Origin: Variovorax paradoxus
GTDB taxonomy: Bacteria > Pseudomonadota > Gammaproteobacteria > Burkholderiales > Burkholderiaceae_C
Reading direction: 5' to 3'
DNA: 64,000 bases
NCBI RefSeq assembly: GCF_009755665.1
Contig: NZ_CP046622.1
Coordinates: forward strand, 4,774,001-4,838,000
In this document: positions 24,748 to 42,255 of the stretch, one piece after another
Numbering within the stretch: position 1 is the stretch's first letter
Layout of the letters: every line of letters begins with the position of its first letter
Notes under the pieces: generated by a model
The model's database searches: none
Seen by the model: only the letters and a program-made list of their open reading frames with translations
What the model was told of the DNA's origin: nothing
Translations under genes and position numbers: made by a program

Positions 24748-25232
24748 AGTCCGGCCGGCTCAAGCTCGAACGGACCATGGCTCGCCGCCAGCGAGGCGTT
24801 GCCGCCATCGAGTTTGCACTCGTCTTCGGTGTTCTGTTCCTCGGCATCTATGGCCTCGTGACGTTCTGCGGCGTTCTCTACGTTCAGCAAGTCGTCTCTC
24901 GCGCGGCAGAAGACGGCGCGAGAGCTGCTCAGTCTTTCCGCAGCGACACGCCGGCCGTAGACCTGCAAACGAATGTTCGAACGGCGGTCTATCGGTCTCT
25001 GGCGCTCTCGACGATTACCCCCGCTTCCGCAGGCAGCGCGCCTTCTTCAAAAGAGACTTGGCTTCGGGCGAAGATGGCGTCCCCTGAAGTGACTGTTTCG
25101 CCTGGAGAAATCGCGGTGAAGGTGACATACCCCTACCGCGAAAACCCGCTGCTGCCGGCCGTTCCGCTGACCGGAAGCTGGATGCCCGAGCACCTGCTTG
25201 GCAAGGCCACGGCCGCCAGATCCTCGTCATAA
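24744..25232 (+). CDS. Second TadE/TadF-like pseudopilin
   Basis: A 162-residue protein that I start at GTG 24744, overlapping the previous stop as GTGA, with GGGAGG five bases upstream. An ATG eleven codons later (MARRQRGV) is possible. The motif RGVAAIEFALVFGVLFLGIYG has the conserved Glu, followed by VVSRAAEDGARAAQSF, which is nearly the same as in the previous gene. It is probably the TadF equivalent. The paired TadE-like genes suggest an old duplication. Confidence 0.85.
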   Translation: MKSGRLKLERTMARRQRGVAAIEFALVFGVLFLGIYGLVTFCGVLYVQQVVSRAAEDGARAAQSFRSDTPAVDLQTNVRTAVYRSLALSTITPASAGSAPSSKETWLRAKMASPEVTVSPGEIAVKVTYPYRENPLLPAVPLTGSWMPEHLLGKATAARSSS

Positions 25233-25236
25233 ACAG

Positions 25237-27324: not shown

Positions 27325-27342
27325 TATACGTATTCCCCTGCC

Positions 27343-28773
27343 ATGAGCGCTCCTCCCAATTTCGACGAACTCGACCTCTTTGTCTGGGAAGGCAAGGCCG
27401 ACATCCTCGACCGTATCGCGCGGTGCATGGCGAGCTTCGACGTGGAGGTGATCCGGGCCGACGGCATGCCGGCGCCGCAGCAGGAGCGCGGCACTGCGCT
27501 TCGGCCGTCGGTTGCCATCATCAGCGTCACGGTCATCGATAGCGGGGCGCTGGCCCATGCGACCGAATTGCTGCAGGGCATGCCGGTGATCTGGGTGGCG
27601 GCGGCTTCGCGCGAGCGCGACTCGCGCACTTACCCGCCGGAGTACCTGCACGTTCTGCCATATGACTTCACCTGTGCCGAGTTGCGCACCATGGTGGCAA
27701 AGCTGGTGCGGCAGCTGCGGGCGCGCGACGTGGCGCCGCAGGCGCCCGACGTGCTGGTGGCGCATTCGGACGCGATGAAATCACTGCTTGCCGAAGTGTC
27801 CGCCTTTGCCGATTGCAACCACAGCGTGCTGGTGCGCGGCGAAACAGGCGTAGGCAAGGAGCGCATTGCGCAGCAGCTGCACCTGGGGCACCAGCACTAC
27901 AGCAAGGGCGCATTCGTGGCGGTGAACTGCGGCGCCATTCCCGACGGCCTGTTCGAGTCGCTTTTCTTCGGCCATACCAAGGGCTCGTTCACTGGCGCGG
28001 TGCATGCGCACCGCGGCTATTTCGAGCAGGCGACGGGCGGCACACTGTTTCTCGACGAGATCGGCGACCTGCCCAAGTACCAGCAGGTCAAGCTGCTGCG
28101 CGTGCTGGAAGACAACGCGGTCACGCGGCTGGGTGCCACGGCGCCGGTCCGGGTCGACTTTCGGCTGGTGGCCGCCACCAACCGCAACCTGCGCGAGATG
28201 GTCGCGAGCGGCGAGTTCCGCGCCGACCTGTTCTATCGGCTCGCGGTGATCGAGCTGCATGTGCCCAGCCTCGAAGAGCGCGGCGAGATCGACAAGATCG
28301 CGATCTTCAAGGCGCTGCTTGCCAATGTGCTGGGCGACGAGCTCGAGGCGCTGGGTGAAACGCCGCACTGGCTGAGCGATGCGGTGGCGGAAACGTACTT
28401 TCCCGGCAACGTGCGGCAGCTGCGCAACCTGGCCGAGCGGGTGGGCGTGATTGCGCGGCAGCTGCATGCATGGGACCAGAACCTGATCCAGCGCGCCATT
28501 GCACTGACGCGCGGCACGCCGACCCCCTCGCCCAACGCGGCAGACAGAAACGGCCACGGCGCAGGCGCCAACGGCGCGGCGCTCGACGCCAGCGGCGACC
28601 GCAAGGGATGGAACGGCAGCGAGCGCAACCGCATCATCGCGGCCCTGGAAATCAACGACTGGAAGCGCCAGGACACCGCGCAGCATCTGGGCATCAGCCG
28701 CAAGGTGCTGTGGGAAAAGATGCGCAAGTATCAAATCCTGGACGGAGAGCCAGGCATCCCCGAGGACGCCTGA
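27343..28773 (+). CDS. Sigma-54-type transcriptional activator at the end of the Tad operon
   Basis: A 476-residue enhancer-binding-protein homologue. Residues 1-125 form a degenerate receiver-like domain without the acidic phosphorylation pocket. The AAA+ domain (~136-370) has Walker A GETGVGKE (166-173), the sigma-54 loop as GSFTGA (214-219, canonical GAFTGA), Walker [11 protein letters not shown] and the arginine-finger region [12 protein letters not shown] Fis-type helix-turn-helix ends the protein ([26 protein letters not shown]). FleQ and VpsR, which bind cyclic di-GMP, share the unphosphorylatable front domain. I infer that it controls flp and the repeat-protein gene. It follows tadG by 18 bp. 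Confidence 0.88.
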
Positions 28774-28788: not shown

Positions 28789-30345
28789 TCAGCGCTCCGC
28801 CAGGCGGGCGCTCCGGCGCAGCGGCGGGTTTGCCGCTGCCGCGGCGGCGCCGCGATCGACAACGGGTTCGCTGGCGCAGCTTGCGTTGCTCGAAATGCAC
28901 AGCGCGGTGAGCAGGCCGTCCTCGCTCAGCGCCGGCGGGCTCGGCGGGCCGAAGATGCGGTCGATCCACGCGTTGCTGGCTTCGGGGTCGATGCGCAGTT
29001 CGCCGGTGGTGCGCGCCAGGCGCAGCTCCGAAATGCGCAGGTCGAACACGGCATCGACATAGTCGAACAGCAGGTTGTAGTAGTCGAGCTGCGCGTCGAG
29101 CACGGCGGGCAAAGTCTCGCGCCCGAACTCCATCAGGCGGCGCCGGCCGCGGAAGGCCTGGCCCGATGTGCTGACGGCCTCCATCAGCTGGCGCTCGCGC
29201 TCTCGGCCCGACACAGTGCGCGCCCATGAGGCCGATGTGAGCTCCAGCAGATTCAGCTTCACGCCTTCGAGCTTGGCTTCCTGGTTGGCAACCTCGGCCA
29301 GCGCGGACTTCAGGCGCAACTGGCGGTCGAAGCCATTGCCGAAGTTCCAGTTCAGCTCGAAGGCCGCGCGCGTCGGGTCTTGCGGCGACACGCCGCGCGG
29401 GTCCTTGCTTTTCACGAACACCGCGTCCACGGTCGGGTAGATGCTGGCCTCCTGCTGGTCGACGAGCGCCTGGGCCCGTGCGACGCGGCCCTTGGCTTCG
29501 GCAATTTCGGTGCTGCGCTCCTCGGCGCGGCGCAGGGCTTCTTCATGCGAAGCGATGCGCCAGAACGTGGGTGCCGCGAGCACGGGCAGCGAATCGGTAT
29601 TGGGCGTGAACTTGAAGTAGGTGTTGAACTTGGCCACCGCCTCATCACGCTGCGCCTGAAAGTCGGATTCGCGCGCGGCTACGCTGGCGCGGCGCGCGGC
29701 CGCCATGTTCAGGTCGTTCTCGCCCGCGGCGCCGAGCGCAACGCGCCGGGCCTCGGCCTTCGACAGCTCGGCCACCACCTCGGTGGACTTGCGTGCGATC
29801 TGCTTCTTCAGGTCGAAGCGCTGCACCTGCAGGTAGGCGGTCAGCGCATCGAGCACCACCTTCTGCGACGTGGTCACCACCGCCTCGTCGTCCGCCTGGT
29901 TGCCGGCTTCGGCCGCGCGCACCGCGGCGCTCATGGCGCCGCCGTCGATCAGGCTCACGCGCGCCTCGGCGGTCAGCACGGTGTAGTTCTCGGTCTTGGC
30001 GTTGGCCGCACCGCTGTTGTAGTTGCCCGAGGCGGTGCCCATCTTGAAGCGCGGAAAGCGCGCCTTCTTGGCAGCGTCCACGCTGAAGCTGCTGGTGTTG
30101 GCGGCCGCCTGCGCAGTCTGCACTTCAGGGTATTCCTGCGAGAGCGCGACCAGCGCCTGCTTCACACGCTGGGCATAGCTTGCAGCGCCGATCGACGGGG
30201 TGGAAAGGCGGCGTGCCGGCACCAGCTGCGCGGGCGGCTCCTGCGCGAAGGCGGCGCCCGGCGGCAGCGCGAAGCTCGCGCACAGCGCTGCGCAGAGAAC
30301 GCCGCGGCCCATGCGGCGCGGGCCTGCCGATTTGCTGCCCCTCAT
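28789..30345 (-). CDS. TolC-family outer-membrane channel of a type I secretion system
   Basis: A 518-residue protein with a signal peptide ending GAAFAQEP and two OEP-type coiled-coil repeats (~70-260 and ~270-470). Family positions include LTAEARVSLIDGG and AAFELNWNFGNGF. It should be the outer-membrane exit duct that docks to the HlyD-like adaptor encoded just upstream. Its ATG overlaps the hlyD stop as ATGA. The stop lies 15 bp from the end of the convergent sigma-54 regulator gene. Confidence 0.9.
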   Translation of the reverse strand: MRGSKSAGPRRMGRGVLCAALCASFALPPGAAFAQEPPAQLVPARRLSTPSIGAASYAQRVKQALVALSQEYPEVQTAQAAANTSSFSVDAAKKARFPRFKMGTASGNYNSGAANAKTENYTVLTAEARVSLIDGGAMSAAVRAAEAGNQADDEAVVTTSQKVVLDALTAYLQVQRFDLKKQIARKSTEVVAELSKAEARRVALGAAGENDLNMAAARRASVAARESDFQAQRDEAVAKFNTYFKFTPNTDSLPVLAAPTFWRIASHEEALRRAEERSTEIAEAKGRVARAQALVDQQEASIYPTVDAVFVKSKDPRGVSPQDPTRAAFELNWNFGNGFDRQLRLKSALAEVANQEAKLEGVKLNLLELTSASWARTVSGRERERQLMEAVSTSGQAFRGRRRLMEFGRETLPAVLDAQLDYYNLLFDYVDAVFDLRISELRLARTTGELRIDPEASNAWIDRIFGPPSPPALSEDGLLTALCISSNASCASEPVVDRGAAAAAANPPLRRSARLAER

Positions 30346-31658
30346 GGTTCGCGAAACGCTTCGCGCCGAAGCTTGAGCACGGGACGAAGGATGTACCAGA
30401 TGAACGGATCGGTTCCCACCTTCAGGTCGACCTCGGACTCCATGCCGGCGGTGACCCGGTTGTCCTGGTGCCCCACATAGGCCTGCCCGGTGCCGACCAG
30501 GATGCGGTAGTAAGGCGCTGCATTGGCAACAGCCGGATCGCGGTCGGCATCGGCGGCCACCAGCGTGACCTTGCCGTCGATGGCGCCGTAGCGCAGGTAG
30601 TCGTAGGCGGTGATCTTCACGCGCGCCGCCTGCCCCACTTCGACAAAGCCGCGGTCGTTCGGATTCAGGCGCGCCTCGATCATGACCTCGTCCTTGTCGG
30701 GCACCACTTCCATGATGGCCTCGCCGGGCTTGATAACCCAGCCGGGGCTGGCGCTGCGCAGGCCCTTGACGATGCCGTCGGCGGGCGCCTTGACGATGGT
30801 GCGGGAGCGCTGGGTGCGCGCGCGCGCAAGGTCTTCGCTCAGGCTTGCGAACTGGCGTTCCACGGTGGCCAGTTCGTCGGAGGCGCGGCGCCGGAAGCGC
30901 CCTTCGGCCTCGGCCATCTTGGCCTGTGCCTCGGCAATGACCGCACTGGCGGAAATGGCGCCCTGGCGTGCCGCGGCCAGCTCGCTTCGCACCCCCTCGA
31001 CCAGCCTGCGCTTTTCGAGCACCTCGACCTGCCCGACCAGTTTTTCGGCCAGCAGCTGCTCCGAAATTTCGAGTTCCTTCTGCATCAGCGCCAGGCGGTC
31101 GTTCAGGCCCTTGACCTTGGCCTGCTGTTCGAGCTCCTTGCTGCGCGCCTGTTCCAGCCCCGACACCGCGCCGGCCATCACGCCGCGCTGCTCGAGCGCG
31201 CGTGCTTCATACGCCCCGGTTTCGCCGTCGAGCACGCTCTCGTCGATGTCGGCCGCGAAACTCTCGCGCTTGAGCGGCTTGCCGCGGCTCTCGGCCATGA
31301 GGCGGATGCGGGTGGCTTGCGTGGCCGCGTGGCGCGCAGTGAGCTCCTCGAAATTAAGGCCGCTGCCGCCCAGGTCGATCTCGACCAGCGACTGGCCCTG
31401 CTTCACGCGGTCGCCTTCCTTCACCAGCACGTTGCTGACAATGCCGCCTTCCAGATGCTGGATCGACTTGACGCGGTCCGACGGAATCACGCGGCCGGGC
31501 GCCACCACCACCGTCTCCATCGGAAAGCCGAGGCCAACGACGGCCAGCACGGCCACCACGCCGCCGATCACCCACTGTCGGCGCCGGCCCTCCGGCGATG
31601 CATGCGCGGCGCGCTTGTGCTCTTCGTCCTGGAGTATCTGCGGCAGATCTGATTTCAA
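30342..31658 (-). CDS. HlyD-family membrane fusion protein (type I secretion)
   Basis: About 438 residues if started at TTG 31658 (KSDLPQILQDEEH), with AGGGA upstream and 34 bp after the ABC gene stop; the first ATG would lie inside the ABC gene. One transmembrane segment covers ~32-52, followed by APGRVIPSDRVKSIQHLEGG, the lipoyl/biotinyl half (VLVKEGDRVKQGQSLVEID), a long coiled coil and the second half-motif VKAPADGIVKGL. This is the LapC/PrtE type that bridges the inner-membrane ABC protein to TolC. Confidence 0.9.
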   Translation of the reverse strand: MKSDLPQILQDEEHKRAAHASPEGRRRQWVIGGVVAVLAVVGLGFPMETVVVAPGRVIPSDRVKSIQHLEGGIVSNVLVKEGDRVKQGQSLVEIDLGGSGLNFEELTARHAATQATRIRLMAESRGKPLKRESFAADIDESVLDGETGAYEARALEQRGVMAGAVSGLEQARSKELEQQAKVKGLNDRLALMQKELEISEQLLAEKLVGQVEVLEKRRLVEGVRSELAAARQGAISASAVIAEAQAKMAEAEGRFRRRASDELATVERQFASLSEDLARARTQRSRTIVKAPADGIVKGLRSASPGWVIKPGEAIMEVVPDKDEVMIEARLNPNDRGFVEVGQAARVKITAYDYLRYGAIDGKVTLVAADADRDPAVANAAPYYRILVGTGQAYVGHQDNRVTAGMESEVDLKVGTDPFIWYILRPVLKLRREAFREP

Positions 31659-31692
31659 GTCGCGGTCCCTGTTTGTTCTTTGATCGCCTGGC

Positions 31693-33537
31693 TCAAGCCA
31701 TGGAACGGTTCGCCGCGGCGGCGCCCAGCGAGTGCGCATCGGCGTCGCTGTCTCCCGCGGCCGGATCGGTCAGCGCCACCAGCGGCTTCTTCACGCCGAA
31801 AAGCTTTGGCACCATCACGGCGGCCGTTCCCTGTTCGACATTGCCCTGCCCAGTGACGTGATAGACCACCGTGGCGGCCGACACGATGCGCAGCGAATGC
31901 GTGACCACCACCACGGTGCGCACCTTGGCCACCGCGAGCAGCGTGGCGAGCAGCGTGCGCTCGCTCTGAAAGTCGAGGTCGTTGCTCGGCTCGTCGAGCA
32001 CCAGCACCGAGGGCTTGCGCAAGAAGCTCATGGCCAGCGCCAGCTTGCGCCGCTCGCCTACCGAAAAGCCCGTGCCTCCTTCGCCCACCACGGTGCGGTA
32101 GCCGTCGGGGAGCTTCGAGATGAAGTCGTGCGCACCCGAGAGCTTGCACGCCGCCACCACCTGCTCGTCGCTCTGGCCCGGGGCCGTGCGGCGCATGGTG
32201 TCGATCAGCGGCCCGCCAAACCAGTACACCTCTTGCGAGAGATAGCTGATCCAGCGCGAGAGCTCTTCGCGGCCGAACTGCGAAAGGTCGTACTCGCCGA
32301 TGCTGATGACCCCGCGCGTGGGCGTGTACAGGCCCGAGAGCAGCTTGACCAGTGTCGACTTGCCGGCGCCGTTGCGCCCGACGACCACATGCAGGCCGCC
32401 GGGCCCGATGTCGAGGTCGACGTTCTCGAGCACCGGCTTCTGCGCGGCCTCGGTGAAGCTGAAGCTCACGTCCTTGAACGTCACGCGGCCCAGCGGCTGC
32501 GGCAGCGTCATGCCGCTCGGCGGTTTTTCGACCGGCTCGGAAAGCACCTTCTCGAGCCGCTTGGCCGCCTCCTTGGCGGCGGCCAGCGAACGCCAGCTCG
32601 AGACCAGGCCCGCCACCGGCTGTAGTGCCTTGAGGGCCAGCATGTTCGAGGCGACCAGGCCGCCCACCGTCATCCACTGCTGCATCACGGAGACAGCGCC
32701 CACCGTCACCACGATCACCGAAAAGACCGTCAGCAGCACGGTGGTGCCGTCGCGCGCGGATTCGATCTGGCCGTTCTTGCTGAAGCTTTCGCTCAGCCAG
32801 GCGTTGTAGGTCTGACGCCACATCTCGATGGTGGGGCCGTCGTTCGATTGCGTCTTGAGCGTTTCGCGCGCATTGCAGATCTCGGAGGTCATGCGGTCGA
32901 GGCCGCGCCCGCGCTGCACTTCTTCCACCCGGCCGGTGCGCACCTCGTCGGCCCACCACCAGGCCAGGAAGGCCATGACACCCAGGAACAAAGCCACCAC
33001 CGGCAATACCGGCAAGGCGACGATGCCGATCACCACCAGCGCGAAGATCGCCATCGGCAGATCGAAGATCGATTGCGCCAGGCCGCCGCTGACCGTGCCG
33101 CGCACCGAAGCCACGTCACGAAAGAACTGGTGCCAGATCGACGCCGGCCGCGCTTCGAGCGCACGCAACGGCCGGTTCAGCATCGAATGGAGCAGCGCAC
33201 CCGACACGCCGTGGTCGATGATGGCGCCCGCATTGCGCAGCAGGCGCGAGCGCCGCGCGCGCAACCAGAACTCGAGGCACAGGAAAAACAAGATGCCGCT
33301 CACCAGCGCGGCCAGCGTCGAGATGCCGCCGCGCGAGAGCACGCGGTCATACACCTGAAGCAGGAAGATCGACGGCAGCAAGCCGAAAAGGCTGATGGGC
33401 AGCGAGCGCCAGGCCGCGCTCTTGACCAGCGGATAGGCGTCGCGAAAGGCTTTGTTCAGCGCACCTGCGTACGGACTCGCGCCCGGCTCTTCGGGCGCAT
33501 CGGCAACCAGCTGGCTGGGCAAGAGAAACTTGATCAT
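31693..33537 (-). CDS. Type I secretion ABC transporter (permease-ATPase)
   Basis: A 614-residue fused half-transporter. Six membrane helices lie in ~45-320. The ATPase domain has Walker A GRNGAGKST (387-395), Q-loop YLSQE, Walker B VLVLDEPSND (Asp515, Glu516) and switch histidine VVVTHSL. The signature motif reads FSVGERRKLALA instead of LSGGQ, an unusual change at a conserved catalytic site. There is no N-terminal C39 or C39-like domain, so the substrate should carry a C-terminal secretion signal. It is the first gene of ABC-hlyD-tolC. The likely cargo is the repeat protein at 37682-40537, an inference from position. Confidence 0.88.
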   Translation of the reverse strand: MIKFLLPSQLVADAPEEPGASPYAGALNKAFRDAYPLVKSAAWRSLPISLFGLLPSIFLLQVYDRVLSRGGISTLAALVSGILFFLCLEFWLRARRSRLLRNAGAIIDHGVSGALLHSMLNRPLRALEARPASIWHQFFRDVASVRGTVSGGLAQSIFDLPMAIFALVVIGIVALPVLPVVALFLGVMAFLAWWWADEVRTGRVEEVQRGRGLDRMTSEICNARETLKTQSNDGPTIEMWRQTYNAWLSESFSKNGQIESARDGTTVLLTVFSVIVVTVGAVSVMQQWMTVGGLVASNMLALKALQPVAGLVSSWRSLAAAKEAAKRLEKVLSEPVEKPPSGMTLPQPLGRVTFKDVSFSFTEAAQKPVLENVDLDIGPGGLHVVVGRNGAGKSTLVKLLSGLYTPTRGVISIGEYDLSQFGREELSRWISYLSQEVYWFGGPLIDTMRRTAPGQSDEQVVAACKLSGAHDFISKLPDGYRTVVGEGGTGFSVGERRKLALAMSFLRKPSVLVLDEPSNDLDFQSERTLLATLLAVAKVRTVVVVTHSLRIVSAATVVYHVTGQGNVEQGTAAVMVPKLFGVKKPLVALTDPAAGDSDADAHSLGAAAANRSMA

Positions 33538-33616: not shown

Positions 33617-33916
33617 TTACACGCCGCGGCATCGAAGCGCTCGCGCAGCCTCCTGGGTTGCCGTTCCGCCGAGGGCAGCGACGGGCTTCAGGAGACCTTC
33701 GGCGGCCACGCAATCTGCGGGTTTTCTGGCCCCCTGGCGGGCGTCATCCATAGGTAGTCCTTTGGCCAGCACCAAGGCGATGTTGGCGCACAGCAACATG
33801 CACAGAAGCCATGCGCCGAGCAGTTGCAGCCAGCCGAGCCACCAGCGGCGGGCGGGCGCTGCCGCCTTTGCTGGATAGCGTTGAATGGGCAGTGGCAGAT
33901 ACGCGCTGAATTTCAT
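33617..33916 (-). CDS. Small membrane protein coupled to the MurF-like gene
   Basis: A 99-residue protein starting MKFSAYLPLPIQRYP, with one strong transmembrane helix at about 29-53 (WLQLLGAWLLCMLLCANIALVL) and a short C-terminal tail. Its ATG overlaps the stop of the 1023-residue MurF-like gene as ATGA, so the two are probably made together. A much longer open frame upstream is the overlap with that gene and is rejected. I do not recognise the family. It may anchor or partner the large protein at the inner membrane. Confidence 0.65.
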   Translation of the reverse strand: MKFSAYLPLPIQRYPAKAAAPARRWWLGWLQLLGAWLLCMLLCANIALVLAKGLPMDDARQGARKPADCVAAEGLLKPVAALGGTATQEAARALRCRGV

Positions 33917-36900
33917 GGCAGTGCTTTCAAAACCCGGGCCAGCCGGGACAGGCCGACGCCTGCGGAACTCTTGGCCAGCACCCAGTCCCCCGGCTGCAGC
34001 AGGCTTCCGAGTGCGGTCGACAAATCGGACACATCGACGAACCAGTGCGACCGGACCTTGGTGCGGATGCGCGCATGCAGTCCCCGCATGAGCGGGCCGC
34101 ACAGCAGCACGCGGTCGGGTTGCGATGCGAGCAGCTCCGGCTCAAGGTCGAGGTGATGCCGCTGCGCGGCAGGGCCGAGCTCCTGCATGTCGCCGAGGAT
34201 CGCCACGCGGCGCGACGGCTCGCAGGGCGCCTGCGACAGCAGCTCGAGCGCGGCGCGCATCGAGCTCGGGTTGGCGTCGTAGGTCTCGTCGATCAGCTTG
34301 AAGCTGCCGCCGCCGATGTGAATGGTGTGCAGAGCGCCGCGCCCGCCCGACGGTTCGAAATGGGCGAAGGGCTCCACCGCGGCGGCCAGCTTCAGGCGCA
34401 TGGCCTGCAGTGCCGCGAGCACGGCCACGGCGCTTGAGCCCATGTGTCGCCCGGGCGCATTGAGCCGCAGCTGGAGCGGTTCGCCGAGCACCAGGGCCTG
34501 GACCTCGCCGTGGTCGAAGGCGAGCAGCCGCACGTCGGCGTCCTTGTGCTCGCCGTACGTGACGATCTGGAGCTGCTGCGCCATCGCAGCCTCTGCAAAG
34601 GTCGCGAACTCGGGAATGTCGCGGTTCAGAACAGCGCCGTCGCCAGGTGCCATGCCCTGGAAGACGCGGCTGTCCAGGCGCGCGGCGGCCTCCGATGGGC
34701 CGCGCGTTTTTTGCGCAGCCGCGGAAAGCCCCGTGACCACCGCCAGCATCGGGCGCACCAGCTGCGCCGAAGCCAGCATGTGCGGCGAGCCCATCTCTAG
34801 CACCCAGTAGGCGGCGTGCCGCGGCATGCAGGTGAGGTTCCAGGCAATGCCCGAGGGCAGGCTGACGTTGCCTTCGGGCCGGCCTACTTCACCCCAGACG
34901 GCCAATGCATTGGCGAGCATCGCGGCCACGGTGCTGCTGCCTGTGCCGCTGCCCAGCACGCCGCATACGCGCCCGCCGAACCCGGTGCGCGCATGTGCGC
35001 CCAGCGCCAGCACCGCCTGCTGCACGTCGGGCACCTGGAGCACGGGCACGCGCTTGTCGAGGTGGGGCGCGGGATCGGTGCACAGCACCGCGGCGGCTGG
35101 CTGCAAGACGCCCTTGAGCGCCACCGCGGCCAGCGGTGTCTTCGAAGGGCGCACCTGGTGCTCGAACACCACGCGCCCCTTGCGCAGGAAGGAGCGCTGC
35201 GTCACGCCGGTGGCGCGCCAGCCCTCCTCCGGCCGCACGACCCATTCGCCACCTGTGACGCGCGCCATCTCGTTCGCGCTCCACGCGGCGCCGTCGTCCC
35301 GGGCACTGCCGGCGGCGGGCAATGCGCGGCGCTCGAGCAGGTAGCGGTGGTAGGCCGCAAGGCCCGACACGTACTGCGCCACGTCGTCCACGCGCACCCG
35401 GAAGGCGTGATGCCGGGTGAAGAACGACCCGGCAACGGTGGACGGCCGCCGGAAGTACATCGCCATCTCGGGCCAGAAGAATCCGTTGAGCAGGTAGTGC
35501 GCGCGGTACTCGAGCGCGCGGTGGAATTTTTCGGTGTCCAGTTCTTCGAGCAGGTGCCGCATGGCGGGCATGCCCTCGAGCTGCTGCAGCATCTGCTGTG
35601 CGGACAGCATGAGCTCGAGCAGCGTCGGAAACGTGGTCTTGCGGTCGAGCACGAAGTCCAGGTAGCCCGCGACGTTCTGCAGGCCGAAGCGAAAGTACTT
35701 TTCCTGCGGGTTCCAGCGCGTGAGCTCGTTGACGCAGCAGCTCAACCGGTGGTCGTGCGCCTGCCAGTGCTGGCTTGCGATGAAATGCTCGAACGCCTTC
35801 TCGACCGCTGCGAGCCACCGCGCATCGCGCGTGAGGCCGTACAGGCGCATGAGGCCCAGGGCCGCCTCGCCGTCGTAATAGATGGCGCGCGAGGCCTGCT
35901 TCACCGTCAGGTCGGCGGCATGCAGCACGTGGTTGAAGCGGCCCGTGTCGGCGTCCTGCATCGACACGATGCCCAGCGCCAGCTTTTCGAGCAGCGGCAG
36001 CCAGTGGCGCGTGTCGGTCGCCTCGCAATACTTCGCCAACGCGAGCACGCAGGCCGCGTTGCCGCTCAGCTTGATCTCATCACCGGCCTCGACGAGAAAC
36101 GCGGCTTCGCTGCCGTCCGCGAGCCTGTAGCCCCGTATGAGCCCGTTCGACAGATGGTTCAGCGCGCGGTCGATGGCGGCCCGCAGCTTGTCTTCGCGCG
36201 TGAGCTCCCACGCCTCGATCATGGCGTGGAGCACGCTCGGATGGCGCGTGGGGTCGGAGGTCGGAATGCGGCGGTCGAAGCACGGGAAATAGCCGTAGGC
36301 GAACCGCCCGTCGGCCTGGACCTGCCGCGCGAGATAGGACGCGCCGCTGCGCACGAGGTCGAGCGCCGAATTCGGGGTGAGCGCGGGCGCCTGGCGCCGC
36401 CCTGCGTCGAGCCCCGTTCCCACCAGCTTGTGCACCACGCAGTCGGACTGGCAAAAAACACCCACGGTGGCCAGCAGGTAGACCGGCCTGTCCGCCGGCA
36501 GGTCGAGCAGGAGCGTGCGTGCGAAGCGCGCCTGGGCGTAGCTCTCGAAGTTGCGCATGTTCACCACCGCATGCGCGATGGACGAATCGGCATAGAGCAT
36601 GGCGTTGGCATTGAGCTCCTGCTCGGTGAATGCCGTCTCGAAGTTCTTGTCGAATGCCAGGCCGAGCCGGAAGTAGTTGCGCTTGACGGCGGCGAGCTGG
36701 GCCTTGAACTGGGCCCATTCGATGGGGCTTGCGCCCTCGACCCAGTCGATGCGCAGCCAAGGCGACACGATGCCGTTTTCGCGCACCCAGCGCGCGATGA
36801 TGCCGGCGCCTTCGCGCCACGCGGTCTCGAACTCGGGCGCGCGCGCATGCACCACGTGCGCACGCTGCGACCCATCGCTGACCGAGAAGAAAAGCGTGAA

Positions 36901-36984
36901 CGCCGGATAAGGCGCCGGCAGCGCCGCGCATACCGAGACCAGGCGCTCGTGGCAGGCATGGAGCTGGTCGGAGAAGGACATCAT
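33913..36984 (-). CDS. MurF-like ligase fused to an alpha-helical repeat domain; degenerate ATP loop
   Basis: A 1023-residue protein without signal peptide. Residues 1-190 are unrecognised (NYFRLGLAFDKNFETAF). About 205-550 is helical with repeating AIYYDGEAALGLMRLYG-type segments, like an alpha/alpha toroid of sugar-active or epimerase proteins. About 565-1023 follows MurF: an N-terminal Mur fold, VLEMGSPHML, LIDETYDANPSSMRAAL (898-913), VAILGDMQELG and a C-terminal WVLAKSS. The P-loop that should read GSNGKTT is VLGSGTGSST (676-685) with no lysine, and the carbamylated-lysine segment is also altered (AARLDSRVF). Either ATP use is lost, or the site works differently. It lies in the secretion/adhesin block. 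Its function is unknown. Confidence 0.72.
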   Translation of the reverse strand: MMSFSDQLHACHERLVSVCAALPAPYPAFTLFFSVSDGSQRAHVVHARAPEFETAWREGAGIIARWVRENGIVSPWLRIDWVEGASPIEWAQFKAQLAAVKRNYFRLGLAFDKNFETAFTEQELNANAMLYADSSIAHAVVNMRNFESYAQARFARTLLLDLPADRPVYLLATVGVFCQSDCVVHKLVGTGLDAGRRQAPALTPNSALDLVRSGASYLARQVQADGRFAYGYFPCFDRRIPTSDPTRHPSVLHAMIEAWELTREDKLRAAIDRALNHLSNGLIRGYRLADGSEAAFLVEAGDEIKLSGNAACVLALAKYCEATDTRHWLPLLEKLALGIVSMQDADTGRFNHVLHAADLTVKQASRAIYYDGEAALGLMRLYGLTRDARWLAAVEKAFEHFIASQHWQAHDHRLSCCVNELTRWNPQEKYFRFGLQNVAGYLDFVLDRKTTFPTLLELMLSAQQMLQQLEGMPAMRHLLEELDTEKFHRALEYRAHYLLNGFFWPEMAMYFRRPSTVAGSFFTRHHAFRVRVDDVAQYVSGLAAYHRYLLERRALPAAGSARDDGAAWSANEMARVTGGEWVVRPEEGWRATGVTQRSFLRKGRVVFEHQVRPSKTPLAAVALKGVLQPAAAVLCTDPAPHLDKRVPVLQVPDVQQAVLALGAHARTGFGGRVCGVLGSGTGSSTVAAMLANALAVWGEVGRPEGNVSLPSGIAWNLTCMPRHAAYWVLEMGSPHMLASAQLVRPMLAVVTGLSAAAQKTRGPSEAAARLDSRVFQGMAPGDGAVLNRDIPEFATFAEAAMAQQLQIVTYGEHKDADVRLLAFDHGEVQALVLGEPLQLRLNAPGRHMGSSAVAVLAALQAMRLKLAAAVEPFAHFEPSGGRGALHTIHIGGGSFKLIDETYDANPSSMRAALELLSQAPCEPSRRVAILGDMQELGPAAQRHHLDLEPELLASQPDRVLLCGPLMRGLHARIRTKVRSHWFVDVSDLSTALGSLLQPGDWVLAKSSAGVGLSRLARVLKALP

Positions 36985-37091: not shown

Positions 37092-37595
37092 TCAGCGGTA
37101 GCTGAATTCGGCTCGGCGATTGAGCTGGTAGCCCTCCTCGGTGGTTTCAGCGGACGCAGGCTTTTCGATGCCCCAGCTGACGGCCTCGATGCGCTCGGCC
37201 GGCACGCCGAGTTGCGTGAGCGCGCGCTGCACGGATTCGGCCCGGCGCTGGCCCAGCGCAAGGTTGTATTCGCGACCGCCGCGCGAGTCGGTGTGCCCTT
37301 CGATCATCACCTTGCTGGCAGGCCGGTTCCGCAGAAAGTTCGCATGCGCTTCCACCACGCTGCGGTACTGCGCCTTGATGTCGTATTTGTCGAAATCGAA
37401 GTACACGATCTTCGATGCGGCCGGGCTCTCCTGCACCGGCGCAGCGGCCGGAGGCGGCTCTACCTTGGCCACCGGCGTGGCCTTGTTCGAGTAGTAGTAC
37501 GTCGCGTCTTCGCGTCCGCTCTTGGGCCCTGTTCCGCAGGCGGCAAGGCTTGCCCCCAGTGCGACGACGGCCAGTATCCGGGAAGTGTTTTTCAT
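37092..37595 (-). CDS. OmpA-like (Pal-type) lipoprotein
   Basis: A 167-residue protein with a lipoprotein signal ending SLAACG (Cys20) and a Pro-rich linker. The OmpA C-terminal peptidoglycan-binding domain covers ~62-165. Key motif: VMIEGHTDSRGGREYNLALG with the diaminopimelate-binding Asp and Arg (NRRAEFSYR). It should anchor the outer membrane to peptidoglycan. It follows the repeat-protein gene by 86 bp, with a strong hairpin between them. It may hold or help display the secreted repeat protein, which is inferred only from position. Confidence 0.9.
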   Translation of the reverse strand: MKNTSRILAVVALGASLAACGTGPKSGREDATYYYSNKATPVAKVEPPPAAAPVQESPAASKIVYFDFDKYDIKAQYRSVVEAHANFLRNRPASKVMIEGHTDSRGGREYNLALGQRRAESVQRALTQLGVPAERIEAVSWGIEKPASAETTEEGYQLNRRAEFSYR

Positions 37596-37681: not shown

Positions 37682-40537
37682 TTAGCCCAGCAAGCCGTGC
37701 AGGATGTTCGTGACCGGAGTCAGAACGCTGCCGGTGCCGGCTGCCTGATCGACCAGGCTCGTGATCGGGGTCACGACATCGGTGACGATCGGTGCGGCTT
37801 GTTCCACGTTGTCCAACAGGCCGGCGACCGTTTCGACCACCGGCGCGAGCGTCGGGGCCGTGCCGGCCAGGATGTCGGTAACCGGCTCGGCCACCTCGGA
37901 CACTGCGGCCACCACCGGCTCCAGCGTCTCACCGACGGAACCTGCGGCGTCGAGGACCGGGTCCAGGATGTTGGCAACCGGGTTGGTGTCGCCCAGCCCG
38001 CCACCAAGCAGGCCGCCATTGCCGAGCAAGCTGCCCACGAGGCCCTCATCGCCCAGGAGACCGCCGAGAAGGTCGCCACCGAGGACGTCGCCTCCCAGCA
38101 GATCGCCGCCGAGCAGGCTGCCGACGACTCCGTCTTCGCCGAGCACACCGCCCAGCAGGTCACCGCCGAGCAGATCGCCGCCAAGGAGGTCGCCACCGAG
38201 CAGGTTGCCGACGACGCCGTCTTCGCCGAGCACACCGCCCAGCAAGTCGCCACCGAGCAGATCGCCGCCAAGGAGGTCGCCGCCGAGCAGGTTGCCGACG
38301 ATGCCGTCTTCGCCGAGCACACCGCCCAGCAAGTCACCGCCGAGCAGATCGCCGCCAAGGAGGTCGCCACCGAGCAGGTTGCCGACGACGCCGTCTTCGC
38401 CGAGCACACCGCCCAGCAAGTCGCCACCGAGCAGATCGCCGCCAAGGAGGTCGCCACCGAGCAGGTTGCCGACGATGCCGTCTTCGCCGAGCACACCGCC
38501 CAGCAAGTCACCGCCGAGCAGATCGCCGCCAAGGAGGTCGCCACCGAGCAGGTTGCCGACGATGCCGTCTTCGCCAAGCACACCGCCCAGCAAGTCGCCG
38601 CCGAGCAGATCGCCGCCAAGGAGGTCGCCGCCGAGCAGGTTGCCGACGATGCCGTCTTCGCCGAGCACACCGCCCAGCAGGTCACCGCCGAGCAGATCGC
38701 CGCCAAGGAGGTCGCCACCGAGCAGGCCGTCTTCGGCAAGAAGGCTGCCCAGCGGACCGGTACCACCGAGCAGACCGTCGTTCCCGAGCAAGCCGCCCAC
38801 CAAGCCTTCGCTGTCGAGAACGCCGCCCAGCACGCCATCGGTCAAACCACCGAGCAGCCCGTCTTCCCCACCCAGCAGCCCACCGAGCGGACCGTCTTCG
38901 ATCAGCCCGCCGAACACGCCGTTCGCGCCGAGCAGGTTGTCGACCACGCCCTCCTGACCCAGCAAACCGCCGGTCAGGCCTTCGCTGCCCAGCAGGCCGG
39001 CCGCGGTGCCCTCTCCGCCGAGCAGTCCACCCACCAGGCCGTCACCCAGCAGGCCGCCCACGATGCCGTCGCCGCCGAGCACACCACCCAGCAGGCCGTC
39101 GTCGCCGAGCGATCCACCGAGCACGCCGCCCAGCAAACCGTCGTCACCCAGGAGGCCGCCGACCAGGCCGTCGTCGCTCAGCACGTTGTTCAACAGGCCG
39201 CCCACGGCGGTGTCTTCTCCGATCAGGTTGCCCAGGGCACCGTCCTCCGCGAGAAGCCCACCCACGAGGCCGTCCTCGCTCACAAGGGTGGTGACCAGGC
39301 TGCCGTCGCCAAGCACGCCTTCGACCACGTTGCCGAGCACGCCGCAGTCGCCGACGACATCTTCAAGAACGCCGTCCAGGCCGAGGGCCGCGGTTGCGCC
39401 GCTCAGGATGCCGTCCTCGCCCACGAGGTTGTCCAGGCCATTCTGAAGAGCGTCCGTGAGATGGTCGACCTGGCCGACCAGCGCATCGGTGGCGCCTTCA
39501 CCCAGAAGGGCATCTACGACGGGACTTGCAACGCCGCCCACGCCGTCGACAACGGTTTCGGCGAAATCGTCCACCGGGTCGAACTGGTTCGGATCGTCGC
39601 GTGTGAAGTTCTCGCCGAACACCGGGGCCACCAAGTCATCGACCAGGTCGGTGGTGCTGTCGATCACACCCGGCACCGGGTTGAGAGAACCACCGAGGCC
39701 CAGGTTGTCGTCTGTCGAGCCGACTGCGCCTTCGAGGAGGTTGTCGCCGGGGTTGAGGAGGCCATTGCCGTCGGCATCGGAGTCCGAGTCGGCGTCTGCA
39801 TCGGCATCGGCATCGGCATCGGCATCGGCGTCTGCATCGGCATCGGCGTCGGCGTCCGCATCCGCGTCGGCATCGCCGTCCGCATCGGCATCCGCGTCGG
39901 CGTCCGCATCCGCATCGGCATCCGTCTCGCCGCCGCCGACGAAGAACGGAATCGTTCCACCGTCGCCGCCGCCGCCACCGCCGAGTGCGGCACCCAGGGC
40001 CGCAGCGCCCAGTGCGCCGAGTGCGAATTCGCCCAGGCCGAGGCCGCCGCCTGCGGCGACCTTCTTCGTGACGGCCAGCGCGGCCGCATCGGCGTCGCTG
40101 TCAGGCGGGGTCACCTGCAGGTCGCCCGAGGCGACATCCACGTTCACTTGTTCAAGGCCGCCGGGCAGCTTGGTCGAGCCGATGGTGGCGTCGGTGCCGC
40201 CGGTAAAGACGCCGGCCAGCGGGGCCTTGTTGGCGGCCGAGCCTGGGAACAGCACGTTGGCCTGGCCGCCTTCGGGAACGATCACGCGGTCGCCCGCCAT
40301 CAATGTCTGGTTGCCCTCCACCGGAATGCGGACGCCTTCGCGCATCACGGCAACGCCCGGCGTAGCATTGGACAATGTGCCAATGCCGGCAGGCGCCGCG
40401 GTTGCGGCGGGCGCCATCGAGCTGGCTGCGGCGGGAGCGCCGAGCGGCATGCTGGTGGCTTGGGCAATGACCACGGGAGCCACGCCACTGGCGGCGGGTC
40501 CTTCGGTCGAAACGGTCGATGCTTGGGGTGCGTTCAT
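37682..40537 (-). CDS. Large Gly/Leu/Asp repeat protein, probable type I-secreted adhesin
   Basis: A 951-residue protein starting at ATG 40537 (MNAPQASTVS), with no signal peptide. Residues ~60-100 contain GVRIPVEGNQTLMAGDRVIV, reminiscent of the N-terminal retention modules of LapA-type adhesins. A Gly-rich hydrophobic stretch follows (~170-195), then an Asp-Ala run (~205-255). The rest is built of LLGG-rich repeats, seven of which form near-identical 29-residue units (about 600-800). The C-terminus is Val/Pro/Thr-rich. It lacks classical RTX nonapeptides. Location beside ABC-hlyD-tolC suggests export by that system. A sigma-54 promoter lies 36 bp upstream. Confidence 0.75.
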   Translation of the reverse strand: MNAPQASTVSTEGPAASGVAPVVIAQATSMPLGAPAAASSMAPAATAAPAGIGTLSNATPGVAVMREGVRIPVEGNQTLMAGDRVIVPEGGQANVLFPGSAANKAPLAGVFTGGTDATIGSTKLPGGLEQVNVDVASGDLQVTPPDSDADAAALAVTKKVAAGGGLGLGEFALGALGAAALGAALGGGGGGDGGTIPFFVGGGETDADADADADADADADGDADADADADADADADADADADADADADADSDSDADGNGLLNPGDNLLEGAVGSTDDNLGLGGSLNPVPGVIDSTTDLVDDLVAPVFGENFTRDDPNQFDPVDDFAETVVDGVGGVASPVVDALLGEGATDALVGQVDHLTDALQNGLDNLVGEDGILSGATAALGLDGVLEDVVGDCGVLGNVVEGVLGDGSLVTTLVSEDGLVGGLLAEDGALGNLIGEDTAVGGLLNNVLSDDGLVGGLLGDDGLLGGVLGGSLGDDGLLGGVLGGDGIVGGLLGDGLVGGLLGGEGTAAGLLGSEGLTGGLLGQEGVVDNLLGANGVFGGLIEDGPLGGLLGGEDGLLGGLTDGVLGGVLDSEGLVGGLLGNDGLLGGTGPLGSLLAEDGLLGGDLLGGDLLGGDLLGGVLGEDGIVGNLLGGDLLGGDLLGGDLLGGVLGEDGIVGNLLGGDLLGGDLLGGDLLGGVLGEDGIVGNLLGGDLLGGDLLGGDLLGGVLGEDGVVGNLLGGDLLGGDLLGGDLLGGVLGEDGIVGNLLGGDLLGGDLLGGDLLGGVLGEDGVVGNLLGGDLLGGDLLGGDLLGGVLGEDGVVGSLLGGDLLGGDVLGGDLLGGLLGDEGLVGSLLGNGGLLGGGLGDTNPVANILDPVLDAAGSVGETLEPVVAAVSEVAEPVTDILAGTAPTLAPVVETVAGLLDNVEQAAPIVTDVVTPITSLVDQAAGTGSVLTPVTNILHGLLG
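38132..38740 (-). repeat. Seven tandem 87-bp repeats inside the adhesin gene
   Basis: Units begin at 38132, 38219, 38306, 38393, 38480, 38567 and 38654; the last is shortened by 12 bp. A degenerate unit lies before them (38045). Each encodes GGDLLGGDLLGGDLLGGVL followed by GEDGIVGNLL or a one-residue variant. The bases are almost identical between units, implying recent expansion or gene conversion. Copy number may vary between strains and could be misassembled. Confidence 0.92.
39770..39924 (-). repeat. Asp-Ala dipeptide repeat (hexamer-based) in the adhesin gene
   Basis: Runs of GCATCG and close variants (plus strand) encode about 25 Asp-Ala pairs with occasional Ser-Asp and Gly-Asp. This gives a highly acidic, flexible linker that could bind calcium. 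Slippage here would change length by whole dipeptides without breaking the frame. Confidence 0.88.
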
Positions 40538-40572
40538 GGTTGGCCTCTGTGACAAAAGATGCATGTACAGGG

Positions 40573-40587
40573 GCAACTGGCGTGCCA
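40573..40587 (-). promoter_or_regulatory. Sigma-54 promoter of the repeat-protein gene
   Basis: The minus strand reads TGGCACG-CCAG-TTGC, an exact match to the -24/-12 consensus TGGCACG-N4-TTGC, with the invariant GG and GC ten bases apart. The -12 GC is 36 bp before the ATG at 40537, leaving room for a start site near 40561 and a short leader with AGAGGCC. A palindrome, AACAGCTGTT (40595-40604), lies just upstream. Confidence 0.8.
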
Positions 40588-40714
40588 AATCGTTAACAGC
40601 TGTTCGCCGCCGCATCACAAACGACGCAACTCCTTGATTTACATGGCTATTTTTTTATTTTCCGGGTCAAAATATCCGGCCGAAAACAGCCGTCGCGGGG
40701 GTCTTTTGGCCATT

Positions 40715-40823: not shown

Positions 40824-41258
40824 ATGTTCAATCCCTCCCAGGAAGACGTGCGCCGCTTCTTCTGCGACGTGTATGCGAAGCACCGGCAAGGCCGGCCGAT
40901 GGAAGCCCTCGAGACGATTGCCGCGGGATGGATCGACGCGCACCCCGAATACCACGAAGACCTGGCCGATGCCGACGCGGCGGTGGCGCGCGTGTACGAC
41001 GGCGCGAACGGCCGCGAGAACCCGTTCCTGCATCTGTCGATGCATCTGTCGATCAGCGAGCAATGCTCGATCGACCAGCCGCGCGGAATCCGCCAGGCCG
41101 TCGAGCTGCTGGCCGCGCGCCGCGGCTCATTGCTCGATGCGCATCACGAGGCGATGGAATGCCTCGGGCAGATGATGTGGGAGAGCCAGCGCGCCGGCCG
41201 CCCGCCTGATGGCGACAGCTACGTAGCCTGCGTGCAGCGCCGGGCAACCAAGGACTAG
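40824..41258 (+). CDS. DUF1841-family protein
   Basis: A 144-residue cytoplasmic protein beginning MFNPSQEDVRRFFCDVYAKH. The family block is NPFLHLSMHLSISEQCSIDQPRGIRQ, followed by AHHEAMECLGQMMWESQR. DUF1841 proteins are common in betaproteobacteria and have no known function. The conserved His and Glu residues could bind a metal. The start at 40824 fits the family; a 29-residue upstream extension is not conserved in character. Its stop shares the palindrome CTAG with the stop of pcaQ. Confidence 0.88.
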   Translation: MFNPSQEDVRRFFCDVYAKHRQGRPMEALETIAAGWIDAHPEYHEDLADADAAVARVYDGANGRENPFLHLSMHLSISEQCSIDQPRGIRQAVELLAARRGSLLDAHHEAMECLGQMMWESQRAGRPPDGDSYVACVQRRATKD

Positions 41259-42208
41259 CCGGCCTTTCGGGAAGGCAGCGCCCCCTGCTGCTTGGCGCCC
41301 TCGCGCAGCAGGGCTGCCATGGCGCCACGCAGGGCGGAAGGCTCGGCCTCGCTGCGCAGCAGCAGTCCCACGGGCTCGTCGGTGCCCGCGGTTTCGATGC
41401 GCAGCCTGACCAGGCGCGCGTCGGCCAGTTCACCGCGCGCGGCGCCCAGGGGAGTGATCCATACCGCGTCGGACACCGCCAGCAGGCCGCGCGCCACCGC
41501 AACGTCGAGCGTCTGCAGCGCGTTGGCGGGTAGCGCCAGGCCGCGCGCGGACAGGAAGCTTTCTGTGTTGTGGCGGGGAATCGTGCCTTCGCCGTACACC
41601 ACGAGCGGATAGGCGAGCACCGCCTGCACCGACACCGCCCGGGCGGGACGCGCCGCGAGCGGATGGCCGGCTCGCACGGCAAACACCAGCGGCTCGGTGT
41701 AGAGCAGCTCGAAGCTGAGCCCGCCCATCAGGCGCGGGTCGCTCATGCGGCCGACCACCAGGTCGAGCTCGCCGGCGCGCAATTCATCGAGCAACACCGG
41801 GTTGGCGGCACTCTTCACCATCACCTGAACCGCGGGCCAGCGCTCTCGAAAGCGCGCAAGCGCCATGGGCAGCAGGGCCGGCGCCACGCTCGGCAGCGCG
41901 CCGATGCGCAGCCGCTCGACGCGCTCGCCCGAGGCGGGCGCCACCGCCTCGGCGCTGGCGTCGAGCGCCTCGAGCACACGCAGCGCATGGGCCAGCAGTT
42001 GCTCGCCGGCGGGTGCGAGCCCCTGCACGCCGCGCCGGCCGGCCTTGCTGCGCTCGACCAGGCGTGTGCCAACAATGGATTCAAGCTCGGAGAGCGTCTT
42101 GGAAACCGCCGGCTGGCTCAGCGAAAGCCGCTCGGCGGCGCGCGCCAGATGGCGCTCCTGGGCCACCGCGACAAGGCAGCGCAGGTGGCGCAGCTGCACG
42201 TTGCGCAC
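41255..42208 (-). CDS. pcaQ: LysR-family regulator PcaQ
   Basis: About 317 residues from GTG 42208, with AGGA four bases upstream; a TTG at 42241 would add 11 residues and cover the operator. The helix-turn-helix is LARAAERLSLSQPAVSKTLSEL, very close to PcaQ of other proteobacteria. The effector domain contains LPSVAPALLPMALARFRERWP. PcaQ activates protocatechuate dioxygenase genes in response to beta-carboxy-cis,cis-muconate. It is divergent from pcaH across ~140 bp that contain a fitting binding site. Confidence 0.88.
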   Translation of the reverse strand: MRNVQLRHLRCLVAVAQERHLARAAERLSLSQPAVSKTLSELESIVGTRLVERSKAGRRGVQGLAPAGEQLLAHALRVLEALDASAEAVAPASGERVERLRIGALPSVAPALLPMALARFRERWPAVQVMVKSAANPVLLDELRAGELDLVVGRMSDPRLMGGLSFELLYTEPLVFAVRAGHPLAARPARAVSVQAVLAYPLVVYGEGTIPRHNTESFLSARGLALPANALQTLDVAVARGLLAVSDAVWITPLGAARGELADARLVRLRIETAGTDEPVGLLLRSEAEPSALRGAMAALLREGAKQQGALPSRKAG

Positions 42209-42240
42209 AAAATCCTGGCGTAGGTCGGCGGTGTTTTTCA

Positions 42241-42255
42241 ATTACCGTTGGTTAT
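42241..42255. promoter_or_regulatory. Probable PcaQ binding site
   Basis: ATTACC-GTT-GGTTAT is a near-perfect 15-bp palindrome in the pcaQ-pcaH spacer. Its complement ATAACC-AAC-GGTAAT resembles the PcaQ motif described in rhizobia (ATAACC-N4-GGTTAA), but is one base shorter in the centre. It lies 95 bp before the pcaH start. Confidence 0.6.

What the first reader, a model, noticed from the sequence alone, without database searches (positions are those of the whole stretch)
33913..36984. MurF-like ligase fusion lacking the catalytic P-loop lysine
A 1023-residue protein joins an unrecognised N-terminal domain and an alpha-helical toroid-like domain to a MurF-like half. The MurF half keeps ETYDANPSSM and VAILGDMQELG but has GSGTGSST in place of GSNGKTT and an altered carbamylated-lysine segment. 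It sits in a type I secretion/adhesin block. It may be a repurposed or inactive Mur ligase.
Basis: partly seen in the sequence, partly recalled or inferred. Interest (0 to 1): 0.75.

Follow-up and report, generated by a model that had tools for sequence, protein, structure and literature searches.

The report
Dead ligase fused to adhesin-linked toroid
A soil bacterium carries a protein whose cell-wall-enzyme half has lost its catalytic site yet is kept almost unchanged in one part, fused to an unnamed toroid-shaped domain that in other bacteria often lies beside sticky surface proteins carrying aspartate dipeptide repeats.

Summary
In detail: 33913-36984(-) encodes 1023 residues, an unnamed domain ("TOR", 1-550) joined to a complete MurF-like half without the P-loop lysine. 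The proposed key, a conserved deviant loop, is not: the loop varies in 120 Variovorax-type proteins (none with GK[ST]), and ten direct TOR-Mur fusions elsewhere keep GK[ST]. The dead halves are one Comamonadaceae branch. P-loop lysine, carbamylation lysine and histidine are lost in 120 of 120, yet the Mur C-terminal domain has dN/dS 0.023 in Variovorax, against 0.17-0.20 for the rest and 0.14-0.24 for neighbouring genes. So this is a retained pseudo-ligase, not debris.

TOR is an AGE/GH76-type toroid without a Pfam family. Asp-X dipeptide-repeat surface proteins lie close by in 31 of 49 diverse TOR loci (0 of 20 control stretches), in Gram-negatives and Gram-positives. Partner modules swap: Mur, ATP-grasp, PGA_cap, glycosyltransferase, none. 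The four GT4 loci with repeats are Ser-rich; 23 of 27 others Ala-rich. Best reading: a modular repeat-modification cassette in which the ligase has here become a binding or scaffold module. The chemistry is unproven.

The parts
35335..36984 (-). TOR domain, residues 1-550: alpha/beta N-terminal part (1-200) plus (alpha/alpha) toroid (200-550)
   Evidence: AlphaFold2 pLDDT 94.5; AGE/GH76 fold; no Pfam family above cut-off
34969..35289 (-). Mur domain 1 equivalent, residues 566-672
   Evidence: alignment with MurF and TOR-linked Mur halves; MurF fold of the full-length model; dN/dS 0.203
34381..34968 (-). Mur middle (ATPase) domain equivalent, residues 673-868
   Evidence: Pfam Mur_ligase_M 681-858; dN/dS 0.178
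34930..34953 (-). degenerate P-loop GSGTGSST, residues 678-685
   Evidence: no GK[ST] in 120 of 120; dN/dS of 676-690 0.346
33916..34380 (-). Mur C-terminal domain, residues 869-1023, with IDETYDANPSSM and AILGDMQELG; hyperconserved in Variovorax
   Evidence: dN/dS 0.023 at dS 0.53; IDETYDANPSSMRA in 118 of 120
33617..33916 (-). 99-aa small protein with one membrane-like stretch (by eye), ATG overlapping the stop of the fusion gene
   Evidence: sequence; tblastn hits in 35 loci: 29 of 29 of L001-L029, L044, L047-L049, L110 and L037
31693..33537 (-). type I secretion ABC transporter
30342..31739 (-). HlyD-type adaptor
   Evidence: TIGR01843 above cut-off
28789..30345 (-). TolC-type outer-membrane protein
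   Evidence: PF02321 above cut-off
37092..37595 (-). Pal-like OmpA lipoprotein
   Evidence: TIGR02802 above cut-off
37682..40618 (-). 978-aa adhesin candidate: Asp-Ala run plus LLGGD-type repeats, proposed client
   Evidence: sequence; weak NCBIfam likeness of the Asp run to Sdr/Clf proteins, far below cut-off; run
39767..39922 (-). Asp-X dipeptide run (52 residues, X = Ala 0.85)

Best explanation
The gene encodes a cytoplasmic helper of the adhesin encoded two genes upstream. The TOR domain is the core: a sugar-epimerase/GH76-type toroid that binds or modifies Asp-X dipeptide-repeat stalks before export. Fused or neighbouring modules add a second activity and are exchanged freely: SdgB-like glycosyltransferase where the repeat is Asp-Ser, and ATP-dependent carboxylate-amine ligases (MurF-like, YheC/D ATP-grasp) mostly where it is Asp-Ala and only the Asp side chain is reactive. 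In the Comamonadaceae branch that holds the window the MurF-like module lost ATP hydrolysis and was kept as a pseudo-ligase; its C-terminal domain now serves as a binding or scaffold surface. Shown: domain make-up, loss of the catalytic residues, selection on the C domain, module swapping, frequent nearness to repeat proteins. Inferred: that the repeat is the substrate, the chemistry of TOR, the ligase product in active relatives, and the role of the C domain.
For: P-loop GK[ST] absent in 120 of 120; carbamylation-lysine column D in 119 and E in 1, histidine column S/A/L, of 120. C-domain dN/dS 0.023 with dS 0.53 in 29 sequences; neighbours 0.141-0.236; C domain 96.2% identical in seven Variovorax proteins against 84-85% for the rest, while in GKT fusions it is below TOR and M. 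18 of 23 TOR-linked Mur rows form one clade; the six dead rows one branch (99) next to a GKT member (97). Asp-X runs in 31 of 49 diverse TOR loci and 24 of 29 Variovorax orthologue loci, 0 of 20 control stretches (400 kb) and 0 of 16 MurF-only loci. Close TORs carry different modules (modules). GT4 loci Ser-majority 4 of 4, others 2 of 27, Fisher p 0.0005, or 0.0025 without the near-duplicate L112. The GT4s of L117 and L126 match SdgB structures at E 1e-184 and 5e-147 (7vfk is SdgB by PMC8561734, passages).
Against: 18 of 49 diverse TOR loci show no Asp-X run (eight of them have a contig or record end within 4 kb of the TOR gene). The own genome's second TOR (L101) lies beside an aldose 1-epimerase gene, with no Asp-X run in 20 kb; its relative L100 has no run either. 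L098, a GKT-bearing TOR-Mur, and L122 have Ser-rich repeats, and L017 is a dead-Mur Variovorax with a Ser-rich, N-masked repeat. Across the deeper dead comparison (window, P0120, L050) the C domain (62.5%) is above M (47.6%) but below TOR (68.8%), so the hyperconservation is shown for Variovorax only. Broken copies exist: P0119 and P0130 read as shifted in frame within or at the start of the Mur half, P0133 ends at the loop. In Variovorax TOR itself changed at H537 (Q in 118 of 120) and N244 (D in 119 of 120). Loci are not independent samples. No chemistry was tested.
Confidence: 0.5

Rival explanations
1. TOR-Mur is a chaperone or export-coupling factor for the repeat adhesin and modifies nothing; both halves act by binding the acidic repeat or the T1SS.
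For: Catalytic residues of Mur lost and two TOR positions changed in this clade; C domain hyperconserved in Variovorax; the slot between Pal and the T1SS genes is kept in relatives.
Against: Fourteen conserved TOR positions (E123, R197, H248, H352, H410, D411, H412, E420, E506, H525, R529, R531, D533, D534) are unchanged in 120 of 120; partner modules elsewhere belong to enzyme families.
Confidence: 0.2
2. The Mur half still catalyses something without ATP, for instance transfer from a pre-activated substrate, using the conserved C domain.
For: C domain dN/dS 0.023; much of the C-domain motif kept (IDETYDANP against IDDAYNANP); Walker-like strand-loop-helix geometry kept in the model (residues 672-697).
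Against: Loop variable in sequence and length; three catalytic positions lost together.
Confidence: 0.12
3. The fusion acts on an envelope sugar or peptidoglycan-type substrate, for instance to anchor Pal or the adhesin, and the repeat is only a neighbour.
For: MurF ancestry, epimerase-type fold, Pal-like gene beside it, TOR copies without a repeat run near, one beside an aldose 1-epimerase gene.
Against: Same TOR family beside repeat surface proteins in Gram-positives, where the annotated neighbours shown include no Pal or T1SS gene; repeat residue goes with module type.
Confidence: 0.13
4. The Mur half is simply decaying after loss of its role.
For: Loop dN/dS 0.346; related loci have TOR alone (L032, L033, L037, L038, L053/L095) or a Mur remnant (L039); a few broken copies (P0119, P0130, P0133).
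Against: The rest of the Mur half is under purifying selection, the C domain most of all; 119 of the 120 proteins are 1022 residues or longer.
Confidence: 0.05

Closest known systems
MurF (UDP-MurNAc-tripeptide D-Ala-D-Ala ligase)
   Same: three-domain fold; 19-24% identity to MurF structures by Foldseek; C-domain motifs
   Different: no P-loop lysine, carbamylation lysine or histidine; below NCBIfam MurF cut-offs; fused to TOR; the genome has a separate MurF-like gene with GSNGKT
SdgA/SdgB glycosylation of Ser-Asp repeat adhesins (PMC3794999: search listing only; PMC8561734: passages)
   Same: enzyme encoded beside an Asp-X repeat adhesin; SdgB-like GT4 lies next to TOR in staphylococcal loci L117 and L126, and a GT4 is fused to TOR in L106 and L112
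   Different: no glycosyltransferase in the window's fusion; repeat is Asp-Ala; TOR was not mentioned in the passages read
Cellobiose 2-epimerase / AGE superfamily and GH76
   Different: 13% identity; extra 200-residue N-terminal part; no Pfam match above cut-off for the window; no sugar activity shown
Paracoccus denitrificans BapA/BapBCD (PMC5588039, passages)
   Same: T1SS-linked adhesin with Asp-Ala repeats (891) needed for biofilm
   Different: no TOR gene is mentioned in the passages read; that genome was not searched by name here
Plastid RNA polymerase MurE-like subunit (rows 8r6s_Q, 8xzv_J; its non-ligase role is recalled)
   Same: a Mur ligase fold kept for another role
   Different: MurE-like, eukaryotic, unrelated setting

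Membership tests
MurF / Mur ligase | three-domain Mur fold | tested here: met
MurF / Mur ligase | P-loop GxxGK[ST] | tested here: not met
   0 of 120
MurF / Mur ligase | carbamylation lysine (which lysine this is, is recalled) | tested here: not met
   D in 119, E in 1 of 120; K in 8 of 8 GKT-bearing fusions aligned
MurF / Mur ligase | histidine of the AH motif | tested here: not met
   S 112, A 7, L 1 of 120; H in 8 of 8 GKT-bearing fusions aligned
MurF / Mur ligase | NCBIfam MurF model cut-off | tested here: not met
   TIGR01143 171.5 of 288.6 bits; NF010693 232.7 of 544
MurF / Mur ligase | ATP-dependent amide ligation | not testable with these tools
   needs an assay
AGE / cellobiose 2-epimerase superfamily | (alpha/alpha) toroid fold | tested here: met
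AGE / cellobiose 2-epimerase superfamily | sequence match to a Pfam family of the fold | tested here: not met
   over 31 TOR rows the best were GH88 E 0.00065, GH127 0.0038, GH76 0.022; the window's own best (GH76) is below its cut-off
AGE / cellobiose 2-epimerase superfamily | paired catalytic histidines (recalled) | tested here: inconclusive
   H412 and H537 are candidates by helix position only; H537 is Q in 118 of 120 Variovorax-type proteins; no residue-level superposition was made
Asp-X repeat adhesin cassette (SdgA/B-like in logic) | Asp-X repeat protein close by | tested here: met
   run at 39767-39922
Asp-X repeat adhesin cassette (SdgA/B-like in logic) | SdgB-like GT4 | tested here: not met
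   none among the six block proteins scanned with Pfam or the nine scanned with NCBIfam; other window genes were not scanned
Type I secretion of a Bap-type adhesin | ABC, HlyD and TolC genes | tested here: met
Type I secretion of a Bap-type adhesin | C-terminal secretion signal in the adhesin | not tested

The most novel reading that the evidence does not exclude
TOR is an unrecognised core enzyme of a widespread, modular pathway, in Gram-negative and Gram-positive bacteria alike, that modifies Asp-X dipeptide-repeat stalks of surface adhesins; GKT-bearing Mur and ATP-grasp modules ligate amines onto the Asp carboxylates, a protein side-chain amide modification that I did not meet in the listings of my ten paper searches, and in Variovorax the ligase became a pseudo-enzyme whose C-terminal domain was refitted to hold the repeat.
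Probability: 0.25. Interest if true: 0.85.

Novelty: new variant of a known kind. Interest (0 to 1): 0.62.

Why it matters
Asp-Ala and Ser-Asp stalks are found in biofilm and host-attachment proteins, but of the two I found only the Ser-Asp glycosylation explained. An unnamed domain family that sits beside such proteins across phyla, with exchangeable ligase and glycosyltransferase partners, would explain how the serine-free stalks are processed and gives a concrete gene to delete. Separately, the window's branch is a clean case of a Mur ligase half that lost catalysis while one domain became the most constrained part of the protein: a natural experiment in pseudo-enzyme formation.

Tried and rejected
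Conserved deviant loop: rejected, the loop varies. Fusion defined by a dead ligase: rejected, ten GKT-bearing fusions. Low-constraint debris: disfavoured by dN/dS. Overlap or gene conversion as cause of the conserved C domain: dS there is the highest of the regions (0.53), and the next gene overlaps by 4 bases only. TOR as a known Pfam family: no convincing match among the rows shown; a profile search of PDB sequences gave one weak hit. Strict rule 'GT4 = Ser, others = Ala': only a tendency (L098, L122, L017 against; L109 is Gly-rich, L099 mixed; L097 has a GT4 and no run). Literature: in the capped listings of ten searches I saw no paper tying a Mur ligase to a repeat adhesin; many hits were off the point, and only open-licence PMC papers are held. 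The full-length model gives no reliable placing of TOR against Mur (pTM 0.58).

How the 49 loci were put together, by hand: L030-L043 (14 of the 43 loci; the other 29 are the Variovorax orthologues, counted apart), 18 of the 20 regions (L110, a Variovorax orthologue, and L111, a likely duplicate of L041, left out) and 17 regions fetched from the 54 plasmid records. Nine of the 49 are staphylococcal. Loci with short flanks (such as L058, L059, L067, L070, L071, L130, L131) were not counted. L028 was left out of the dN/dS set beforehand (match length not a multiple of three). One search shows the best 120 of 1098 and the best 120 of 591.
Full report
What is there. The minus-strand ORF 33913-36984 encodes 1023 residues. 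Its second half matches Mur_ligase_M and Mur_ligase_C above cut-off and MurF crystal structures within residues 638-1019; the full-length AlphaFold2 model (mean pLDDT 85.5, pTM 0.58, low-confidence linker 553-565) hits MurF first by Foldseek (E 7e-25). The window lies in a 5.57-Mb single-contig genome; the named nearest relatives are Variovorax. The same genome has a separate MurF-like gene with GSNGKT.

Catalytic residues. In the 120 best of 1098 homologues (the window's own included) none has GK[ST] in the loop; there are 33 different loop strings, and the segment is 18 residues in 103 of 120 and 17 to 43 in the rest. One of 120 has any lysine in the loop columns. The lysine column of the RxKxxIF segment holds D in 119 and E in 1; the histidine column holds S in 112, A in 7 and L in 1; the eight GKT-bearing fusions aligned with them have K and H there. 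That these are the carbamylation lysine and an active-site histidine is recalled knowledge of Mur ligases. In contrast IDETYDANPSSMRA occurs in 118 of 120 and AILGDMQELGPA in 115 of 120.

The fusion is older than the loss. Direct TOR-Mur fusions with an intact loop: L030, L031, L034, L035, L061, L064, L065, L066, L115 and L119, the ten that I read outside the dead branch. The longer TOR-X-Mur proteins L036, L040, L041, L094 and L100 also have GK[ST]. Dead ones: the Variovorax-type set, L050 and L051. In the Mur tree 18 of 23 TOR-linked rows group together (SH-aLRT 99) away from 16 MurF rows; the six dead rows form one branch (99) next to L061, GKT-bearing and from the same family (97) (quick method, no bootstrap). 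The other five TOR-linked rows (PGA_cap type L036, L094, L100; Fic type L041; staphylococcal L116) fall elsewhere, some on long branches, so they may be separate recruitments. In the TOR tree the dead fusions share a clade (94) with TOR-alone genes and the L039 remnant.

Selection. Over 28 of 29 fetched Variovorax loci plus the window, dN/dS (Nei-Gojobori, ratio of means) is 0.170 for residues 1-200, 0.180 for 201-550, 0.203 for 566-672, 0.178 for 673-868, 0.346 for the loop 676-690, and 0.023 for the C-terminal domain 869-1023, where dS is 0.53. Neighbouring genes: ABC 0.141 (30 sequences), HlyD 0.154 (20), TolC 0.222 (28), Pal 0.236 (30). Identity agrees: in seven Variovorax proteins the C domain is 96.2% identical on average against 84-85% for TOR, D1 and M, while among GKT-bearing fusions, at greater distances, the C domain (61.9, 62.2, 36.8% in three groupings of 3, 2 and 5 proteins) is below TOR (68.0, 71.0, 50.4) and M (66.3, 66.7, 45.0). 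Against a simple story: between the window, P0120 and L050, the deepest dead members compared, C (62.5%) is above M (47.6%) but below TOR (68.8%). So the extreme constraint on the C domain is shown for Variovorax, after the loss. It is the strongest single result here. Broken copies are known: P0119 (967 aa) and P0130 read as shifted in frame, P0133 ends at the loop; whether these are real or sequence errors was not tested.

Genomic setting. In close relatives the slot between a Pal-like gene and the T1SS genes holds TOR alone (L032, L037, L095), TOR-PGA_cap-Mur (L094), GKT TOR-Mur (L098) or dead TOR-Mur (L092, L093); L038 has TOR alone before the T1SS genes; some loci are cut by contig ends. 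TOR occurs with PGA_cap and Mur, YheC/D ATP-grasp with VanY and Mur, Fic (below its cut-off) and Mur, PGA_cap alone, GT4 or YheC/D, several ATP-grasp domains (L128) and GT2 (P0159). Of 54 plasmid records with a TOR match I opened 17: there TOR lies beside an LPXTG protein in Listeria, Sdr-type or Pls-like proteins in staphylococci and an 'adhesive domain' protein in Enterococcus, with a separate Mur ligase gene (L116, L120, L121, L123) or a GT4 (L117, L126) next to it in the staphylococci. The names given to these TOR genes, such as poly(glycerol-phosphate) alpha-glucosyltransferase or Mur ligase, probably come from fused relatives.

Asp-X repeats. A run of at least eight Asp-X pairs is found in 31 of 49 diverse TOR loci (884 kb) and in 24 of 29 Variovorax orthologue loci; in 0 of 20 control stretches (400 kb) from TOR-bearing genomes and 0 of 16 MurF-only loci (69 kb). 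Of the 18 negatives, L036, L038, L040, L092, L103, L107, L108 and L124 have a contig or record end within 4 kb of the TOR gene; L113 has an Ig-like type I secreted protein beside it. The five negative Variovorax loci all end less than 2 kb upstream of the gene. Ser is the main X residue in 4 of 4 GT4 loci with a run (L106, L112, L117, L126) and in 2 of 27 others (L098, L122); Fisher p 0.0005, or 0.0025 without L112, whose TOR is nearly identical to that of L106. Ala is above half in 23 of the 27 others (exceptions L098, L122, Gly-rich L109, mixed L099). A fifth GT4 locus, L097, has no run. Loci are related, so these p values are too good. L017, outside this count, is a dead-Mur Variovorax with a Ser-rich masked repeat. 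The GT4s of L117 and L126 match SdgB structures at E 1e-184 and 5e-147 and that of L106 at 9e-29.

Reading. SdgB puts GlcNAc on Ser of DSD motifs (PMC8561734, passages). Asp-Ala stalks have no such acceptor; the partners found there include Mur and ATP-grasp ligases, which join amines to carboxylates, so amidation of Asp side chains is a natural guess, not a result. Asp-Ala stalk proteins matter for biofilm in Paracoccus (PMC5588039, passages) and occur in Listeria Lmo1799 (226 Ala-Asp repeats; PMC8687577, passages). For the window I propose that the Mur half is now a binding or scaffold module. TOR may have changed its chemistry too.

Limits. No coordinates were available for residue-level superposition of TOR on epimerases; trees are quick ones; loci come from what the collections hold and were partly chosen by hand; the literature library is open-licence only.

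Noticed in passing
G000:C1:1132518-1134194 (L045, L101): Second TOR gene in the same genome, about 50% identical to the first, TOR alone, next to an aldose 1-epimerase gene and near an HTH/cupin regulator gene, with no Asp-X run in 20 kb; a relative in G122 (L100) is fused to PGA_cap and Mur.
   Followed up: partly
33617-33916 (-): 99-aa small protein, ATG overlapping the stop of the fusion gene, found in 29 of 29 fetched Variovorax orthologue loci and in L037.
   Followed up: partly
L098:9010-12234 (+): Mirror case: TOR-Mur fusion with intact GKT but a TOR in which many otherwise conserved positions are changed, and a changed C-domain motif, beside a Ser-Asp repeat protein.
   Followed up: partly
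L116, L120, L121, L123 (staphylococcal plasmid records): TOR and Mur ligase genes side by side on plasmids, with an Asp-X repeat run close by; in S. epidermidis L117 and L126 an SdgB-like GT4 gene stands in place of the Mur gene.
   Followed up: partly
25198-28773 (+): A gene with a weak TadE-like match and a sigma-54-activator-like gene beside the adhesin block; relatives of both lie beside the block in several related loci.
   Followed up: no
41255-42241 (-): LysR regulator close to PcaQ (286.4 bits against a cut-off of 303.8).
   Followed up: no
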